Positions 31,610-39,082 of a stretch of DNA of 43,880 bases are shown here, in pieces. Source of the DNA: Legionella sp. (GTDB lineage: Bacteria; Pseudomonadota; Gammaproteobacteria; Legionellales; Legionellaceae); the NCBI GenBank assembly GCA_009995425.1, contig JAACPN010000011.1:1-43880 (forward strand). The letters run 5' to 3'. The position numbers were made by a program, and so were the translations under genes. How positions within the stretch are numbered: position 1 is the stretch's first letter; the number at the start of each line of letters is the position of its first letter. The notes under the pieces were generated by a model, which worked only from the letters and a program-made list of their open reading frames with translations, ran no database searches and was not told the origin of the DNA.

Positions 31610-31944
31610 TGACAACGCCATTTTATACGCATCATGTTTTTATCTGTGCTAATCAAAAGGCTCCCGGAAAAGTTTGCTGTGCAAACACCGGTGGCGAGCC
31701 GTTTTTTGAGTACATGAAGTCGCGTTTGGCTGCATTGGATATGCATGGTCCGGGCAAAGTTCGTATAACACAGTCAGGTTGCTTGGGTCGCTGTAAACTC
31801 GGCCCGGGTCTTGTGATCTATCCTGATAATGTGTGGTATCGCTACGCTTCAGAGGCTGATATTGATGAAATTATTCAAACACATTTAATCGATGGTCATG
31901 TTGTTGAACGTTTGTTGATGGAGCGTTCACCTGATGCTGCTTAG
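31609..31944 (+). CDS. Thioredoxin-like [2Fe-2S] ferredoxin
   Basis: A 111-residue protein of the COG3411-type (2Fe-2S) thioredoxin-like ferredoxin family. The cluster ligands are one Cys near FICANQKAPGKVCCAN (about residues 12-27) and the pair in SGCLGRCKLGPG. The family carries electrons; its partner here is unknown. The ATG shares a base with the pheT stop (TGATG), so it is coupled to pheT, which is unusual. A GTG one codon earlier (31606) is possible. Confidence 0.85.
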   Translation: MTTPFYTHHVFICANQKAPGKVCCANTGGEPFFEYMKSRLAALDMHGPGKVRITQSGCLGRCKLGPGLVIYPDNVWYRYASEADIDEIIQTHLIDGHVVERLLMERSPDAA

Positions 31945-32485
31945 AAACTATTTGAACGTTTATGCATGGGCTTTGATGCTTGCCTATTTGGCTACAATAT
32001 TTGCTATGAATCATCATGCTACGGGTTTTGCTTGGCAGGAAGCGGTGTTTGTTTTGCCCATTATATTTGGCATGATTTTTTTTTCTTCACGAAGAGTGTC
32101 AAATAAACTACAAAGCCATGAGCACGATATATTTATCATCAGCTATAGCTTTGTTCTTGCTGCGTTAGTTTCTATCATCACGCAATACGATAATAGCGAT
32201 ATTAGGGGCTGGTGGGGAATAGCTCTGTATTTTTATACGTTCATAGGTATTTTATTTGCTTTGTATTTTGCCTATTTTAATCAGCTCAAGCGTGGTCATC
32301 AGGTGTATACCCATCTGTTTGCTGTCTTGATTCTTGTTGTTTTTGCTTTACCGAATCTATGGCCTCGATATATTACGCTGAAATATTTGGGACGTGTTGA
32401 ATTTTATTGGTTTTCTCTCGCATTGATAGGCCTGTTACACGTTGCTTTCTTTGGGCTTAATAAATACTACAAAAAAATTTTTTGA
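31934..32485 (+). CDS. Six-helix membrane protein of unknown function
   Basis: A 183-residue protein with hydrophobic helices at about 9-26, 35-52, 66-84, 94-116, 125-143 and 157-175, and short basic loops (RR at 53-54, KR near 119). I do not recognise a family. It overlaps the ferredoxin gene by 11 bp, and its stop is 14 nt before the exported NlpC/P60-like protein start, so the three appear co-transcribed. Confidence 0.6.
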   Translation: MLLRNYLNVYAWALMLAYLATIFAMNHHATGFAWQEAVFVLPIIFGMIFFSSRRVSNKLQSHEHDIFIISYSFVLAALVSIITQYDNSDIRGWWGIALYFYTFIGILFALYFAYFNQLKRGHQVYTHLFAVLILVVFALPNLWPRYITLKYLGRVEFYWFSLALIGLLHVAFFGLNKYYKKIF

Positions 32486-32499
32486 AAAGAGTTCGTTTG

Positions 32500-34029
32500 A
32501 TGAAAAAGATGTACCTTGCAGGATTGATCGCTTTAGGCTCCATGGCAGGAAATGCCGAAAAACCTATTTATCCGGCTGAAATTATGGGAAGAGATCTCAT
32601 GACGCCAGGGCTCGGTTGGCTAGGACACGTGGGCGTGAGCACAGCGCCTGATGTTCATGAGGATGCGCATCATGTGATAGAAGTGTTAAGAGGCGAGACG
32701 CCCATTATTCAAACAAACAGTATTGCCAGTTTTAAATCAAAATCATCGTATTGGGGAAGTCGCTACGGTATTGCCGATCGCGGTGAGCATGCGTTAAGAA
32801 TCTTGCAGGAAGCTAATTTTCAAAAAGATCTTTTTTGTTCAACTTACACAGCAACACCCAATTATACGCCTGGTAGGGGCTATTATGATGATACAGGTCA
32901 TGCGATTCCTACATCGTGTGGTTATTTTCGATGCGATACCTTTGTCAATCATGTGTTTCATGCCGGTGGGTATTCACTACCGACGTATAATCCTCCAGGG
33001 CCCGATGTTGTTGTTTCTACTTTGCCGCGCTTAGTTTTTAAAGCCTTTCCTTATCTTAATAGCCAAGAAAATAGGTTGGATGCGGCTTCTGTAGATCAAA
33101 ATCAGGCGCATTTATCGCTTCAAGATCTTGATTTTACGTCGAGTGAAGCGTTCGTCTTGATGCCACTCGACCAATTTATTTCAGTCATCGATGCAGCCAC
33201 AAAAGATCAGCAACGCGCTCAGTATTTTTTAAGCTTGGCGCAAGATCAAGCGTTAGATGCTCAAAAGCGGCAGTATTTATTTGATGTTGTGGGGTTTGTT
33301 GGGGATTTATCAAACATTTCTGAATTAGTGAATACTTATCATGAAGAACAAAACGTCACGATTAAGCAGCAAATATTAGCAACACTTCAAAATATTCGAC
33401 AACGATTGCTTGAATCAGGCAATCATGACCTAGAAAAACATAAACTTCATCATTTTTATGCTTCTATCCTCGAGAGCAAATTATTGTCAAATGAGAGGGA
33501 AATGGCGCTTAGAGGCTATATTGCACTAAGTACTCACGAAGAAATATTATCTAATCAATTCAAGCTGAATAATTCGAGACTGTATGCTGATATGCATCCA
33601 AGAATAGCACTCGGGCTAAAGTTGGAGCTTTTGCATAAAACCTCTGATTTGGAAGATGTTTTGATTCCAGATATTCTTCATTTTTTAAGCTTGCAAGATG
33701 ATGTTGAGTTGGAAGAAGTCTTCCATGTTTATTTAGTGAATCGCTTTATGCGCGCAGGGCTCAATAGCTTTAAGCCTAGCTCAAAAATACAGATAAAAAA
33801 TCACTTAAACTCAATCAAGCATCAATATCTTCCAGATTTTGCTAAGAAAACGGCTGATAACATGTCGTTTGTAAGCCGTCGCGTATGGTTAGAAGCCTTT
33901 GCTTTGGCTGGGGCTCGGTCCATGGATGAAGCTAAAGCAGAAATACTTAGCGTGCTTGGTTCGATGGACGCATCCTACCATGAACATTATACACGTGGCT
34001 TATCAAAAGCACTTATGAGTACGACATAA
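32500..34029 (+). CDS. Exported permuted NlpC/P60-like (papain-fold) protein with helical C-terminal domain
   Basis: A 509-residue protein from the ATG at 32500 (AAAGAG site 9 nt upstream). A signal peptide (about 1-20) is followed by MTPGLGWLGHVGV with His43, IQTNSIASFKSKS, SSYWGSRYGI and CGYFRCDTFVNHVF with Cys145. The His precedes the Cys, the order of the permuted NlpC/P60 (YiiX/YebB, LRAT-like) superfamily. The rest (about 220-509) is helix-rich and may be an armadillo/HEAT-like superhelix. Members act as amidases, peptidases or acyltransferases; the substrate is unknown. It could be periplasmic or a secreted effector. Confidence 0.65.
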   Translation: MKKMYLAGLIALGSMAGNAEKPIYPAEIMGRDLMTPGLGWLGHVGVSTAPDVHEDAHHVIEVLRGETPIIQTNSIASFKSKSSYWGSRYGIADRGEHALRILQEANFQKDLFCSTYTATPNYTPGRGYYDDTGHAIPTSCGYFRCDTFVNHVFHAGGYSLPTYNPPGPDVVVSTLPRLVFKAFPYLNSQENRLDAASVDQNQAHLSLQDLDFTSSEAFVLMPLDQFISVIDAATKDQQRAQYFLSLAQDQALDAQKRQYLFDVVGFVGDLSNISELVNTYHEEQNVTIKQQILATLQNIRQRLLESGNHDLEKHKLHHFYASILESKLLSNEREMALRGYIALSTHEEILSNQFKLNNSRLYADMHPRIALGLKLELLHKTSDLEDVLIPDILHFLSLQDDVELEEVFHVYLVNRFMRAGLNSFKPSSKIQIKNHLNSIKHQYLPDFAKKTADNMSFVSRRVWLEAFALAGARSMDEAKAEILSVLGSMDASYHEHYTRGLSKALMSTT

Positions 34030-34080: not shown

Positions 34081-34524
34081 TTACTTGCTGTTAACGTTAA
34101 CCTCGATGCGCTGAGGTTTTGCTGATACTTTTTTGGGTATGATAACTTCAAGTACGCCGTGATTGAAATGAGCAGAAATTTCACTGCTGCTCGCACTATC
34201 CGGTAATTTAAACTGTCGATTAAAACGACCATGCTCGCGTTCAATGCGCGCAAAACCTTCTTTGCTTTCTTTGGATTCGTGTACTCTTTCACCTGAGATG
34301 CTTAAAAGATTATTTTCAATCGAAACATGGATGTCTTCTGGTTTGACGCCAGGAATATCGGCATAGACAACATAGCGCGTATCTTCCTCTTTTAAGTCAA
34401 CCAGAGGCCTCCAGGCGCATGTATCCAGAGGTGCTTGGTCATGACCACTGTTTTCTAAAAAATTATCGAAAAAAGCGTCCAACTCACGTGAAAAGCTTAC
34501 AGGTCTACGTGTTATAAGATTCAT
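34081..34524 (-). CDS. Hsp20 small heat-shock protein
   Basis: A 147-residue alpha-crystallin-domain chaperone. WRPLVDLKEEDTRYVVYADI starts the domain, then GVKPEDIHVSIENNLLSISGE, REHGRFNRQFKLPD and the diagnostic GVLEVIIPKK. The tail has the I-x-V anchoring motif (IEV). The ribosome site AAGGAGG is strong and 7 nt before the ATG. It holds unfolded proteins under stress. No sigma-32 promoter is evident. Confidence 0.95.
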   Translation of the reverse strand: MNLITRRPVSFSRELDAFFDNFLENSGHDQAPLDTCAWRPLVDLKEEDTRYVVYADIPGVKPEDIHVSIENNLLSISGERVHESKESKEGFARIEREHGRFNRQFKLPDSASSSEISAHFNHGVLEVIIPKKVSAKPQRIEVNVNSK

Positions 34525-34625: not shown

Positions 34626-34700
34626 AACATTAAGGGTCAAATCTCTTTATAATGCTATAAAACAATCTATTTTATATGGCATTATAAAGAGATTTGACCC
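34626..34700. repeat. Hairpin repeat, copy 1
   Basis: The core 34634-34700 is a 67-nt palindrome. Arms of 22 nt (34634-34655 and 34679-34700, starting GGGTCAAATC and ending GATTTGACCC) pair perfectly. Inner arms TATAAAA/TTTTATA enclose the loop CAATCTA. With AACATTAA on the left, copy 2 at 36532-36606 matches except for a few bases. It lies between hsp20 and the 588-residue orphan. Confidence 0.95.
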
Positions 34701-34764
34701 CTATTCTATTTAATTGCCATATATGTTAATATGTGCGCATGATAAACAAATTTGGAGCACTAAC

Positions 34765-36531
34765 ATGCCTCGACGAATTGCCGTCTTAACATCCTATATG
34801 CACCAACGTGGTGGAGACATCGTGTCAGCAATGAGTTTTATTAAATCGGTTTTAGCAACGGATCCAGCTGCCCAATTTGAATGGGTGGTCAAGCGTGATA
34901 TTAGTAGTTTTAATCGCGATCTTGAGGCATTTAAAGCGACCGAATTAGGTGCCTTTAGCAATCAGGTTTATTTAACATGTATTGACAGTAGCGATTATCA
35001 GAATTTTGATGTTAGGCCCTTTGGCGTTTTCAACAAATTAACAGAACAACAACTAAAACCGGACGAGCTCACCAGATTATCCGACACCAATTGGGGAGTG
35101 CAACCAAGATGGCTTGGTTGGCAAGACATCCATCAAAAAATAGAGACTAAGCAGACAGCCGACCGATTGCGTGCGTGCGACATGATTGCTATGGTTGCGA
35201 ATCCGCACCGGATGGTGAAGGCTGACCATCAATTTTTACATAACCAATTTAAAAAACCGATTAAGTTAATTCCTGAATATGATTTATATCATACTAATTG
35301 TCAAACGTGGGGTTATCGTAATGCTGAGGTGATTCAAACAGGTCTTAATGGAGCAGGTGTGTATATCGATGAGACCATTACTGCAAGGAATGGATTGGAT
35401 GACTCAGCGCCTGAAGATGCTGCTTTTATAACGTATCTGATGGCGGATGATGTTGAGCAATACCGACAAAACAACCGCTTATATTATGGTTATTTCTTTG
35501 ATAACGAACAATTGTCACCGGCGAATTTCACGGTAAAAACAGCGTTCTACCTGAGCAATAGCATCATGTTGGCGATAGATAGTGGTGAGAAGTATAATAT
35601 TGATATTGTCATTCCAGGATTTAAATGCGACCAAGCATTGCAAGACATTTTCAAGCAGGTGTTGAGCGCTTTGCCTAAGCAATATAAAGACGCATTAAGC
35701 TCCATTTATTATGATACAAAGCAGCAAGATGGCACGTTTAACCGAGTCCAAATGCCGACGGATCAAAATGATGGCTTATATCAATTGCGTCTGATTAACC
35801 CTCGGCGATTAGAGCGAAAAACAGTGCAGTCGTTATTAAACGATTCGGAACCATGGGTCGGTCTAACGGGCGATGCTTCATGGATAGAGGGGCTCATGAA
35901 AGGAAAAATAGTTTGCTATCAGGTTGTGGTCTGGAAACAGTCTTTTTTTAATGCTTTTATACAGTATTTAACCAAAAAAATGCCACACGACAGCTATCTG
36001 TTGAAGTTCTATCTTTTGCAAAAGTGTGATCGGATTAATTCTGAGCGTAATTTTGAGCAAATGCGCCTGCTTTATCGCAACCATCTTCCTGAGATGCGGG
36101 CTGATGCTCGTAAGCTCGCAGAATTTATTATTCAAGAGAAAAATCTCAGCATCACGATGAGTAAAGCGCTGGTTGAAAGCATAAAGGTAAGAAATCAATC
36201 AGCTCCAGGTCAGCAAACAAATATAGATATAGAGAGTATAGGTAGGGACTCAGGAGAGGCTGATGATTCAGCTTATCATTGGTATTTTGAAATGCTCAAT
36301 AGCCCTGCATTCAAAGAAGGAGGTGCTGCATTGATAGCGGCTGGGTTAATTGCTATTGCATTGAGCACATGCGTCCCAGGTGTTTTGGGAGCGGTTCTGT
36401 TGGCAGGTGGAGTTTGTGGGGTTGGTTTGGGGGCTACTGGATTAGGCGCATCATTATTATATGGTTTCTTTAAACCAGTCGAGCCCATTCATCTAGAGCA
36501 AAACGCGCCAAACATGAACCTTTTTTGCTAA
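34765..36531 (+). CDS. Orphan 588-residue protein with C-terminal membrane hairpin
   Basis: A protein of 588 residues from the ATG at 34765 (GGAGC site 6 nt upstream); an upstream in-frame ATG at 34714 lacks support. I do not recognise a family. It opens with PRRIAVLTSYMHQRGGDIVS, an alpha/beta start recalling GT-B glycosyltransferases, and has a Gly-rich GLTGDASWIEGLMKGKIV block late in the soluble part (about 370-390). The end holds two Gly/Ala-rich hydrophobic helices (about 519-569) with a short soluble tail. It is bracketed by copies of one hairpin repeat and stands alone. It is a candidate host-targeted or envelope protein; function is a guess. Confidence 0.65.
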   Translation: MPRRIAVLTSYMHQRGGDIVSAMSFIKSVLATDPAAQFEWVVKRDISSFNRDLEAFKATELGAFSNQVYLTCIDSSDYQNFDVRPFGVFNKLTEQQLKPDELTRLSDTNWGVQPRWLGWQDIHQKIETKQTADRLRACDMIAMVANPHRMVKADHQFLHNQFKKPIKLIPEYDLYHTNCQTWGYRNAEVIQTGLNGAGVYIDETITARNGLDDSAPEDAAFITYLMADDVEQYRQNNRLYYGYFFDNEQLSPANFTVKTAFYLSNSIMLAIDSGEKYNIDIVIPGFKCDQALQDIFKQVLSALPKQYKDALSSIYYDTKQQDGTFNRVQMPTDQNDGLYQLRLINPRRLERKTVQSLLNDSEPWVGLTGDASWIEGLMKGKIVCYQVVVWKQSFFNAFIQYLTKKMPHDSYLLKFYLLQKCDRINSERNFEQMRLLYRNHLPEMRADARKLAEFIIQEKNLSITMSKALVESIKVRNQSAPGQQTNIDIESIGRDSGEADDSAYHWYFEMLNSPAFKEGGAALIAAGLIAIALSTCVPGVLGAVLLAGGVCGVGLGATGLGASLLYGFFKPVEPIHLEQNAPNMNLFC

Positions 36532-36606
36532 AACATTAAGGGTCAAGTCTCTTTATTATGCTATAAAACAATCTATTTTATATGGCATTATAAAGAGACT
36601 TGACCC
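36532..36606. repeat. Hairpin repeat, copy 2
   Basis: The core 36540-36606 repeats copy 1. Left arm begins GGGTCAAGTC, right arm ends GACTTGACCC: the A-T pair of copy 1 is a G-C pair here, a compensatory change. One further base (T for A in the left arm) gives a mismatch. The inner TATAAAA/CAATCTA/TTTTATA is unchanged. It abuts the stop codon of the orphan gene and lies 11 nt from the priA end, so it may also act as a two-way terminator. Confidence 0.95.
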
Positions 36607-36617
36607 TATTTTTGGGT

Positions 36618-38585
36618 TTAAGCTAAATCAATCGGATCCACATCCATCGCCCAGCGTACGCCGTTTTGTTTCGCATGCGGTGGGTAGGTGTGTTGAATAA
36701 AAGCTAATGCTTGATGAAGCTTGGCGCGTGAGGCCGATTTAAGCAGCAGTTGCATATGGTACTCTGTCGCTTTGCGTGCAAGCGGGGCGGGAGCTGGGCC
36801 TAACAGCATCACGCTCATATGCGCCAGTTGGCTTTTAACCACGGTTAAGAAATGCCTGACACTGCGTTCATTTTTCCCTGATGCACGAAGCAAAGCTAAA
36901 TAATGATAAGGTGGCCAAGCGGCTTGTTCTCGTAGCGGTAATAAAGCATCGGTAAACGCAGAATAGCCGTTTTGAATCAAGCGATTCAGCAAAGCATTAT
37001 CTGGAAAATGCGTTTGAATGAGTACTTCACCCGGAAGCTCGGCGCGTCCCGCGCGCCCGGATACTTGGGTGATAAGCTGGCCTAAGCGTTCGAGTGCTCT
37101 AAAATCTTGGTTATAAAACCCTGCATCCGTATCTAAGATAACCACCAACGTTAATTTCGGAAAGTGATGTCCTTTGGCCAGCATTTGTGTACCAATAAGA
37201 ATTTGAGATTGACCCGATTCAATTTTAGCCAAGACTTCAAGCAGGTGTTTGCTTTGTCGAATTTCATCGCGATCAATGCGATCGATGTGAATATTAGGAA
37301 AATAGTGACTTAAATATTCATGCACGCGTTGGGTGCCTGAGCCGACAGGCACTAAATCTTGACTTTTACAGGCATCGCAAGCCACGGGTACAGGGATTTT
37401 TAAGCCGCAGTGATGACAAATCAAGCGATTGCTTTGACGATGCAGGGTCAGGTGGCTATCACAGGCTTTGCAGTCGGCCATCCAGCCACAGGCGTGACAA
37501 AGAAGTACTGGGGAAAATCCACGGCGATTAATAAACACTAAGGCTTGATTACCTTGGTCAATATGCTGCTTAATCGCTTTTAACGTAGGTTCTGCTAACC
37601 CATGGGTTAATTTTTGTTGGCGTAAATCAATGATGCTGTAGCGCAGGGCTGTTTCGCTCTCCGCTTTTTGTGTGAGTTTTAAGTGCGTGTATTTTTTAAG
37701 CTTACAGTTATGTAAGCTTTCAAGGCTTGGTGTCGCTGAACCTAAAACAATAGGGACATGCTGCTGATGTGCACGGATTAACGCCGCGTCGCGTGCAGAA
37801 TAACGCACGCCATCTTGTTGCTTAAGCGAAGCGTCGTGTTCTTCATCGATAATCATGAGCCCTAAATGAGGCATGGGGGTGAATAATGCGGTACGTGTGC
37901 CTATCACAATTTTAGCAGCTCCAGTACGTGCGAGCTCCCAAGCTTCTGCGCGTTTTTTATCGGACACATGCGAATGGATCATCACGATAAGATCTGGAAA
38001 ACGTGCTTCAAAACGCGTGAAAAGCTGCGGTGTTAAACCGATTTCAGGCACTAAAATTAAAATTTGTTGGTTTTTGGCAAGTACCTGCGCCGCAAGTTGC
38101 AGATACACTTCGGTTTTACCGCTTCCAGTGACGCCATGCAGTACAAAGGCATGGTAGTGATTTAATGCATGACGCATGGCTTCGAGGGCTACGGCTTGTT
38201 CCTGGTTTAATACAAGCGGTGGGCTTGGAGGTTTTGTGTTGGGTTTCGGCAGTTTAGGCTCAATCATCTGCCCTGCGCGAATTTTTTTAGGCAGTGCGAT
38301 GGCCAGCACTTCAGACAGGGGCGCATGATAATAGCGGTTAATCCAGCGACATAGTTTAAGAAAAGCTTCAGAGAGCAGAGGCGTTTCGTCAATGACTTCC
38401 GTGATGGATTTAAGTTTACGTTGGGCATCTTCAGGCGTACCAATACCAACAATCACACCCAGTTTTTGCGTGTTTCGAAACGATACCCACACACGTGAAC
38501 CTATCGGGGCGGGCGTGTCAGGAAGGGCGAGGTAGTCGAAGTAATCCCGCTTGGTGTTGGGAATGCAAACATGTAAAACCGTCAC
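36618..38585 (-). CDS. priA: Primosomal protein N' (replication restart helicase)
   Basis: A 655-residue 3'-5' helicase that restarts stalled forks. There is an N-terminal 3'-DNA-binding region (FDYLALPDTPAPIGSRVWV), Walker A GVTGSGKT (151-158), the DEEHD box, a zinc-binding set of Cys residues (CHACGWMADCKAC, CHHCG, CDAC) and RAGRAELPGEVLIQT. A GTG at 38603 is in frame, but the GTG at 38585 overlaps the upstream stop as GTGA and begins TVLHVCIPN, close to E. coli PriA. It ends next to hairpin copy 2. Confidence 0.96.
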   Translation of the reverse strand: MTVLHVCIPNTKRDYFDYLALPDTPAPIGSRVWVSFRNTQKLGVIVGIGTPEDAQRKLKSITEVIDETPLLSEAFLKLCRWINRYYHAPLSEVLAIALPKKIRAGQMIEPKLPKPNTKPPSPPLVLNQEQAVALEAMRHALNHYHAFVLHGVTGSGKTEVYLQLAAQVLAKNQQILILVPEIGLTPQLFTRFEARFPDLIVMIHSHVSDKKRAEAWELARTGAAKIVIGTRTALFTPMPHLGLMIIDEEHDASLKQQDGVRYSARDAALIRAHQQHVPIVLGSATPSLESLHNCKLKKYTHLKLTQKAESETALRYSIIDLRQQKLTHGLAEPTLKAIKQHIDQGNQALVFINRRGFSPVLLCHACGWMADCKACDSHLTLHRQSNRLICHHCGLKIPVPVACDACKSQDLVPVGSGTQRVHEYLSHYFPNIHIDRIDRDEIRQSKHLLEVLAKIESGQSQILIGTQMLAKGHHFPKLTLVVILDTDAGFYNQDFRALERLGQLITQVSGRAGRAELPGEVLIQTHFPDNALLNRLIQNGYSAFTDALLPLREQAAWPPYHYLALLRASGKNERSVRHFLTVVKSQLAHMSVMLLGPAPAPLARKATEYHMQLLLKSASRAKLHQALAFIQHTYPPHAKQNGVRWAMDVDPIDLA

Positions 38586-39082
38586 GTGGCGGCTCGTTCC
38601 CACGTGTGACTGGCTGATTGCCCGGGTGCAGAAAAAACTTGAACAACCAATTTGTCAATATGATGTCGCTCGAGTGCTACTTCGTCTTGAATAAGTTCTT
38701 GAACAAACCAACGAGAGAGCTCTTCAATGGTAATGTTGGCAAGGGGCATCAACGTCACATCTTCTTTTAGAAACGGCATTTTCTTGTGATTAAATAAAAA
38801 ATAATAATATTCATCATCTTCGGAAAATTCTAAATAAGGTGAGTGCATGGGCATTAAAAAAGTCTGATGCAAGTGCTTGCATAACACCTGAATTTTTTCT
38901 TTGTAATAACGATAATCAAACGTGAGGCCGTTTTTTTCAATCTGCGTGCTGATGGCTAGCGCAACATCATAACGATGACCATGAAGCGGCTCGCGATCGG
39001 TCGCCGAAAAAATGGTGGTGTGCCCAGCTGAAAAGTTCATCGAGGGTTTTTGAAGTGTCACCGTGGTTTTGTATGTGCTCAT
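38582..39082 (-). CDS. PTPS-family protein lacking the catalytic Cys (PTPS-III-like)
   Basis: A 166-residue 6-pyruvoyl-tetrahydropterin synthase/QueD-fold protein. Zinc ligands are His21 (FSAGH) and His34, His36 (HGH). QueD and mammalian PTPS carry a Cys before HGH; here the segment is DREPLHGHRYDV with Glu31 at -3 and no Cys. Glu in this place marks the PTPS-III subgroup, which can supply hydroxymethyl-dihydropterin for folate in organisms without FolB. That assignment is by motif and is inference. It overlaps both midA-like (4 bp) and priA. Confidence 0.8.
   Translation of the reverse strand: MSTYKTTVTLQKPSMNFSAGHTTIFSATDREPLHGHRYDVALAISTQIEKNGLTFDYRYYKEKIQVLCKHLHQTFLMPMHSPYLEFSEDDEYYYFLFNHKKMPFLKEDVTLMPLANITIEELSRWFVQELIQDEVALERHHIDKLVVQVFSAPGQSASHTWERAAT

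What the first reader, a model, noticed from the sequence alone, without database searches (positions are those of the whole stretch)
34626..36606. Orphan gene bracketed by two 67-nt hairpins with a compensatory base pair
The two repeats are 67-nt palindromes, same orientation, about 1.9 kb apart, differing in the outer arm by an A-T to G-C pair swap (AAATC/GATTT versus AAGTC/GACTT). A double change that keeps pairing points to selection on the folded form, as RNA or as single-stranded DNA recognised by a REP-associated or IS200-type transposase. Copy 2 abuts the orphan stop and copy 1 sits upstream of its start. The unit could be a mobile cargo, a MITE pair, or a structured leader plus terminator.
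Basis: partly seen in the sequence, partly recalled or inferred. Interest (0 to 1): 0.75.

Follow-up and report, generated by a model that had tools for sequence, protein, structure and literature searches.

The report
Palindromic mini-transposons bracketing an accessory gene
The two hairpins look like copies of a small passenger element whose ends match those of a known kind of bacterial jumping gene present in a sister species; they sit on either side of a gene that is new to this genome but not unique to it, and nothing shows that they carried it.

Summary
Two 69-bp palindromes (34633-34701, 36539-36607), same orientation, 1906 bp apart, are the only full copies found in the genome. They differ at four bases: two make the A-T to G-C swap; one (34651/36557) breaks a stem pair in copy 2; the outermost base (34701/36607) pairs only in copy 2. 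Their ends (GGGTCAARTCTCTTTATAA) match the terminal inverted repeats of a 1.05-kb element in congener G005 whose 323-aa protein has Y1_Tnp and Bac_DnaA_C domains. That is the published TIRtron/TIRYT kind (PMC3733652, PMC6006769). Best reading: non-autonomous palindromic derivatives (MITEs) of such an element. The own assembly has no TIRYT match at E<=1e-20. The 'orphan' has relatives in 30 of 143 other genomes of its family; its three best relatives have no recognisable TIR in the flanks held. Gene and neighbouring hsp20 lie in a variable slot before priA; hsp20 has no match in seven congeners, the gene one weak one. Mobility of the gene and selection on the fold are unproven. New member of a known kind; modest interest.

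The parts
34633..34701 (+). Palindromic element, copy 1 (MITE-like; GGGTCAAATCTCTTTATAATG at both ends), TA at 34631-34632 and 34702-34703; between the divergent hsp20 and accessory gene
36539..36607 (+). Palindromic element, copy 2 (ends with AAGTC/GACTT), TA at 36537-36538 and at 36607-36608 (the latter overlaps the last base); between the convergent accessory gene and priA; followed by ATTTTT on the + strand, terminator-like by eye only
   Evidence: the simple terminator scan did not list it
34626..34632 (+). AACATTA, identical to 36532-36538: similarity of the two copies continues 7 nt beyond the palindrome on the left
34765..36531 (+). Bracketed 588-aa gene, no Pfam or NCBIfam family at E<=1; relatives seen in genomes of the same family, two of them in named Legionellaceae records; C-terminal hydrophobic stretch (by eye)
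34081..34524 (-). Hsp20/alpha-crystallin family gene (PF00011, E 2.3e-23); no match in the 7 other genomes of the genus
36618..38603 (-). priA, the conserved right border of the variable slot; homology with G005 resumes at 36613

Best explanation
The hairpins are two copies of a 69-bp non-autonomous palindromic element built from the terminal inverted repeats of a TIRtron, a transposable element whose HUH/Y1 tyrosine transposase (TIRYT, a relative of REP-associated transposases with a DnaA-type HTH) is flanked by GGGGTCA-type inverted repeats. Shown: shared ends with a Y1_Tnp/Bac_DnaA_C element in a congener, other short elements with similar ends and different middles in five other genomes and once more in the own genome, and no TIRYT match in the own assembly. 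Inferred: the transposase recognised the folded single strand and spread the element in trans; one copy arose nearby from the other, because two independent random insertions would lie this close with a chance of about 0.2% and the copies share 7 nt of left flank. The bracketed gene is part of an accessory block in a variable slot before priA; the elements probably landed beside it rather than carried it. Copy 2 may now serve as a terminator for the gene (position and sequence only).
For: G005:C12 carries TAGGGGTCAAGTCTATTTATAAT and TAGGGGTCAAGTCTGTTTATAAT as inverted ends 1046 bp apart around a 323-aa Y1_Tnp + Bac_DnaA_C gene. Over the 19 nt from GGGTC, window arms differ from the G005 left end at one base (C for A) besides the A/G site; the left arm of copy 2 at one more. 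Of 39 TIRYT matches, the 30 given as loci were examined: 20 have a strong inverted repeat with GGTC on both sides of the gene, the 5 closest full-length ones among them. The TIR pattern with up to 2 mismatches hits 7 times in the own genome, 14 in G005 and 8 in G124, against 0 for the reversed pattern in each. 13 short elements (43-175 bp), 2 in the window and 11 in 9 other fetched loci, have such ends. A near-identical pair also lies 970 bp apart in G005.
Against: Outside G000, G005 and G124 the pattern has 43 hits in 35 genomes against 35 hits of the reversed control over the listed genomes, so near chance by count (my sums). No intact cognate transposase in the own draft assembly; its only Y1_Tnp match is a fragment with stops. 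No empty site or target duplication could be shown. The middle of the element occurs in no other of 143 genomes at fewer than 3 mismatches; the 5 three-mismatch hits have no TIR with fewer than 5 mismatches nearby.
Confidence: 0.8

Rival explanations
1. Composite mobile cassette: the two same-orientation elements act as the outer ends of a unit that moved the gene between them, as single-stranded DNA or by recombination.
For: No match to the gene in 6 of 7 congeners and a weak 27% partial one in G004; both copies bracket exactly this gene; copy 2 lies at the right border of the accessory block; similar same-orientation bracketing of open frames in G005:C20, G124:C6 and own C48.
Against: hsp20, outside the bracket, is equally private to this genome, so the accessory block is larger than the bracket. 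The three best relatives (G060, G130, G059) have no TIR with fewer than 5 mismatches in the stretches held; G060 has only 278 bp upstream and G059 is cut by the contig end. No empty site.
Confidence: 0.1
2. Expression element: structured leader (copy 1) plus terminator (copy 2), kept by selection on the RNA fold.
For: Position between divergent and convergent genes; folds of -38 to -41 kcal/mol; one compensatory pair; ATTTTT after copy 2; family-wide arm pairing 230 of 260 cells against a shuffle mean of 222.7, p 0.017.
Against: Two other differences pair in only one copy; arm agreement at the A/G site 9 of 13, p 0.22; the pairing excess is not significant without the two window copies (191 of 220 against 187.4, p 0.13). 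The terminator scan does not list the hairpins (3 found, 2.7 expected) and promoter-like hits are at chance level, 7 against 7.4. The identical loop in both places points to copying, not to two separate RNA roles.
Confidence: 0.15
3. The compensatory pair was made by mutation, not selection: template switching between the arms during replication copied one arm on to the other. (Compatible with the best explanation.)
For: Arms in the window pair at 23 and 22 of 24 positions plus one G-T each; of the 11 other short elements 10 have 16-21 and L093 all 24; the mechanism is described in PMC8794818 (abstract read).
Against: A single event; two ordinary substitutions through a G-T intermediate, which three other elements show at this site, also explain it.
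Confidence: 0.5
4. Segmental duplication or assembly accident unrelated to transposition.
For: Flank similarity AACATTA shared on the left.
Against: Similarity stops near the palindrome on the right and after 7 nt (plus a gapped GCTAAA, by eye) on the left; four differences between copies on one contig; ends match a transposase element.
Confidence: 0.07

Closest known systems
TIRtron / TIRYT elements and their repeated TIR families (PMC3733652; passages read)
   Same: TIRs, some sharing a GGGGWSAS motif, flank a Y1 tyrosine transposase; TIR copies occur singly, as dimers and in clusters, some self-complementary.
   Different: Here GGGGTCAA/AGGGTCAA (eighth base A, not C/G); only two full copies in the genome; no TIRYT match left in the own assembly; the word Legionella does not occur in that paper's main text.
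TnpAREP subclass 2.1 with Bac_DnaA_C or other HTH C-terminus (PMC6006769; section 20 and passages read; 291 of 292 RAYT group 1 sequences fall there)
   Same: The G005 protein has Y1_Tnp (E 4.9e-17) and Bac_DnaA_C (E 7e-10).
   Different: Below the NCBIfam REP_Tyr_transpos cut-off (70.1 of 80 bits); subclass membership not tested by a tree.
REPINs / GTAG REPs with RAYTs (PMC3116915, search listing only; PMC3733652, passages)
   Same: Short palindromes thought to be mobilised in trans by a Y1 transposase.
   Different: No GTAG tag; the repeat is the TIR itself; two full copies instead of a high copy number.
QMITE1 and QMITE2 of Coxiella burnetii (PMC5896051; abstract and passages read)
   Same: MITEs with structured TIRs in another gammaproteobacterium, often beside gene ends.
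   Different: 150-400 bp, some 50 or more copies, direct repeats; no shared sequence was tested here.

Membership tests
TIRtron-derived TIR element (MITE) | Ends match the TIRs of an element with a Y1 transposase | tested here: met
   G005:C12 TIRs, one mismatch plus the A/G site over 19 nt
TIRtron-derived TIR element (MITE) | Other short copies with similar ends | tested here: met
   13 short elements of 43-175 bp: 2 in the window, 11 in 9 other fetched loci from G000, G005, G011, G012, G124 and G162
TIRtron-derived TIR element (MITE) | GGGGWSAS motif at the end | tested here: inconclusive
   GGGGTCAA: 7 of 8 positions fit; many relatives at about 35-40% identity have GGGTCAG
TIRtron-derived TIR element (MITE) | Mobilised by the transposase; empty site known | tested here: inconclusive
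   no clean empty site in congeners; movement itself not testable here
TIRYT / TnpAREP subclass 2.1 | Y1_Tnp domain plus Bac_DnaA_C/HTH C-terminal domain in the candidate helper | tested here: met
TIRYT / TnpAREP subclass 2.1 | Groups with published members in a tree | not tested
   no published members were at hand
GTAG REP / REPIN | GTAG tag beside a 20-40 nt palindrome, high copy number | tested here: not met
   no GTAG at the palindrome edges; two full copies
IS200/IS605 end | Subterminal hairpins instead of terminal inverted repeats (PMC6006769 abstract; absence of TIRs recalled) | tested here: not met
   terminal inverted repeats around the candidate helper gene
Rfam RNA family | Match over the gathering score | tested here: not met
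   best is mir-1 at 43.7 of 45.6 bits, with hits on both strands
Structured RNA under selection | Covariation across homologous copies beyond shuffles | tested here: inconclusive
   p 0.017 with, 0.13 without the window copies; A/G site p 0.22

The most novel reading that the evidence does not exclude
Palindromic TIR elements of a TIRYT family bracket accessory genes in the same orientation repeatedly (window; G005:C20; G124:C6; own C48) because a Y1 transposase acting in trans can mobilise the bracketed unit as one single-stranded cassette: a composite-transposon mode for tyrosine (HUH) transposases that would help explain turnover of accessory genes in this family of bacteria.
Probability: 0.08. 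Interest if true: 0.65.

Novelty: new member of a known kind. Interest (0 to 1): 0.27.

Why it matters
It ties an unexplained pair of hairpins to a transposase family of a known but little-studied kind and records TIRtrons and small derivatives in genomes of the window's family. It is also a warning that one compensatory base pair in a mobile palindrome is weak evidence for a functional RNA. If the bracketing pattern proved to be cassette transfer, it would be a route by which accessory genes move in this family.

Tried and rejected
Rfam: only sub-threshold miRNA hits, the best on both strands, rejected as chance matches of an A+U-rich hairpin. Viral contigs: no exact TIR match. Plasmids: no relative of the gene. 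PDB by sequence: nothing meaningful (E 0.27 and 0.83). Empty-site hunt in congeners with the slot before priA, a 78-bp element in G005 and a 338-bp pair of ends in G005:C9: homology breaks before the element or covers one side only. The 338-bp case holds other repeated sequence inside and is over 180 bp, so it was not counted as a short element. Five three-mismatch hits to the hairpin middle were read: no TIR with fewer than 5 mismatches near any; one (L179) has CGGTTAAATCTATTT, a faint resemblance. An outward -35-like TTGACC in the right arm of copy 1 has no fitting -10 box by eye and is dropped. Rows dropped before the pairing counts: 12 of 25 rows, those longer than 180 bp (complete elements and long combinations), leaving 13. 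In the homologue check, a looser consensus gave chance hits of 4 mismatches in L033 and 5 in several others, none starting GGGTC.

Full report
OBSERVATION. The window is a whole contig (G000:C58) of a 1.86-Mb, 83-contig draft genome. Two palindromes lie at 34633-34701 and 36539-36607, in the same orientation, as part of a 75-nt direct repeat of 96% identity. They are the only inverted repeats of this quality in the window and each folds far better than shuffles on either strand. A search of the own genome finds no further full copy, and the 25-nt middle has two exact copies there and none at fewer than three mismatches in the other 143 of 144 genomes searched.

THE COMPENSATORY PAIR. The copies differ at four places over 69 bp. 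Two are the A-T to G-C swap. The third breaks a pair in copy 2, the fourth is the outermost base, paired only in copy 2. In 13 short elements with such ends, the arms agree at the A/G site in 9; three are G-T (two of them near-identical copies) and one is A-C. Shuffling right arms among elements gives agreement as high in 22% of trials. Over 20 arm positions pairing is 230 of 260 against a mean of 222.7 (p 0.017), but 191 of 220 against 187.4 (p 0.13) without the two window copies. The elements are related, few, and were picked by likeness to the consensus, so the test is weak in both directions; it gives no clear support for selection on the fold as a family trait. Template switching between arms is a mutational route to the same double change (PMC8794818, abstract read).

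WHAT THE ENDS MATCH. A scan for GGGTCAARTCTMTTTATAA with up to two mismatches hits 38 of 141 genomes. By my sums there are 72 hits, 29 of them in G000 (7), G005 (14) and G124 (8), where the reversed control has 0; the other 43 are not clearly above the control, 35 hits in all. G005 is a congener whose PriA is 94% identical. In G005:C12 the pattern stands as inverted ends 1046 bp apart around a gene with a PF01797 match. The 323-aa product has Y1_Tnp and Bac_DnaA_C domains and resembles the REP-associated tyrosine transposase model just below its cut-off. Relatives at E<=1e-20 occur in 30 of 144 family genomes, not in G000. Of the 39 matches, 30 came as loci and were examined: 20 have a strong inverted repeat with GGTC on both sides, among them the five closest full-length genes; L128 shows it only in part, L145 has different ends, and eight, truncated genes or genes cut by contig ends for the most part, show none at that score. 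The own genome keeps only a Y1_Tnp fragment with stops, at C74.

KNOWN KIND. Such units have been named TIRtrons and the proteins TIRYT, with moderately repeated TIR families in dimers or clusters and, in part of them, the motif GGGGWSAS (PMC3733652, passages). Most TIRYT examples were later placed in TnpAREP subclass 2.1, with a DnaA-type or other HTH C-terminus (PMC6006769, section 20 and passages). A search of the held paper library for 'TIRYT' gives these two papers only. A search for papers with at least two of Legionella, miniature inverted-repeat transposable, and tyrosine transposase listed 13; none of the listings (titles and abstract starts) describes this element. The hairpins therefore look like a new member of a known kind.

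THE BRACKETED GENE. The 588-aa product has no Pfam or NCBIfam family at E<=1. It is not an orphan: 31 of 144 genomes of its family, own included, match at E<=0.001, the best in G060 (77%), G130 (48%) and G059 (41%); the rest are mostly 22-36% over parts, or short matches at the C-terminus. The G060 and G059 contigs have the lengths of two records titled Legionellaceae bacterium and Legionella sp., from which I infer the family name. In the four best sequences the first 480 residues or so are conserved, the C-terminus is not. A role as a secreted effector would be a guess from the family it occurs in. The three best relatives, one cut by its contig end, show no TIR with fewer than five mismatches in the stretches held.

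THE SITE. Among eight genomes of the genus the gene has a full match only here (G004 has a 27% partial match) and hsp20 (PF00011) only here. In G005 nucleotide homology to the window stops at 34028 and resumes at 36613, with other sequence between; G004 and the other five differ again in the 1.5 kb held. So the slot before priA is variable, the accessory block includes hsp20 as well as the bracketed gene, and copy 2 lies at its right edge. The last point is weak, because homology resumes near the priA stop codon, where conservation is expected to begin.

MECHANISM. Best reading: a TIRYT, now not found in this assembly, recognised the folded TIRs and spread a minimal palindromic element; one copy gave rise to the other nearby (chance of two independent, evenly spread sites this close about 0.2%; shared AACATTA). 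Whether the TA beside the window copies is part of the TIR or a target duplication is open: of the five closest complete elements two (G005, G128) have TAG at both ends, G150 at one, and no empty site was found. Copy 2, right after the stop codon and followed by ATTTTT, may act as a terminator, by position and sequence only.

Noticed in passing
L048 9515-9630 and 10485-10600 (G005:C20): Two 116-bp elements with the same kind of TIRs, 98% identical and 970 bp apart in the same orientation, bracket a 204-aa open frame: a second case of the bracketing pattern.
   Followed up: partly
L094 945-4071 (G124:C6): Cluster of TIR elements (168-170 bp and partial ones) interspersed with a 197-aa frame and an ATPase-type frame (PF13304 AAA_21).
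   Followed up: partly
L091 206-1520 (G000:C48): Identical 20-nt TIR starts in the same orientation on both sides of a 404-residue AAA_14/DUF4143 frame in the own genome.
   Followed up: partly
L047 4963-5038; G000:C74:9786-9860; G005:C9:72723-72796: A different repeat of about 75 bp, beside Y1_Tnp fragments in two genomes and nested between two TIR-like ends in G005:C9: perhaps an IS200-like end.
   Followed up: partly
L089 1805 and 1921 (G128:C18): A complete TIRtron with a second, near-identical right end 116 bp further out.
   Followed up: no
L109 1477-1491 (G005): GAGGTCAGATCCCTC just outside priA in G005, where copy 2 lies in the window; possibly a decayed end of a related element.
   Followed up: no
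L145 1350-1392: A Y1 gene with quite different, self-complementary ends (GGGGACGGTCCGGGACGGACCCC).
   Followed up: no
window 31934-34029: 183-aa and 515-aa frames with no family over a cut-off; part of the latter is shared with G005 beside the variable slot.
   Followed up: no
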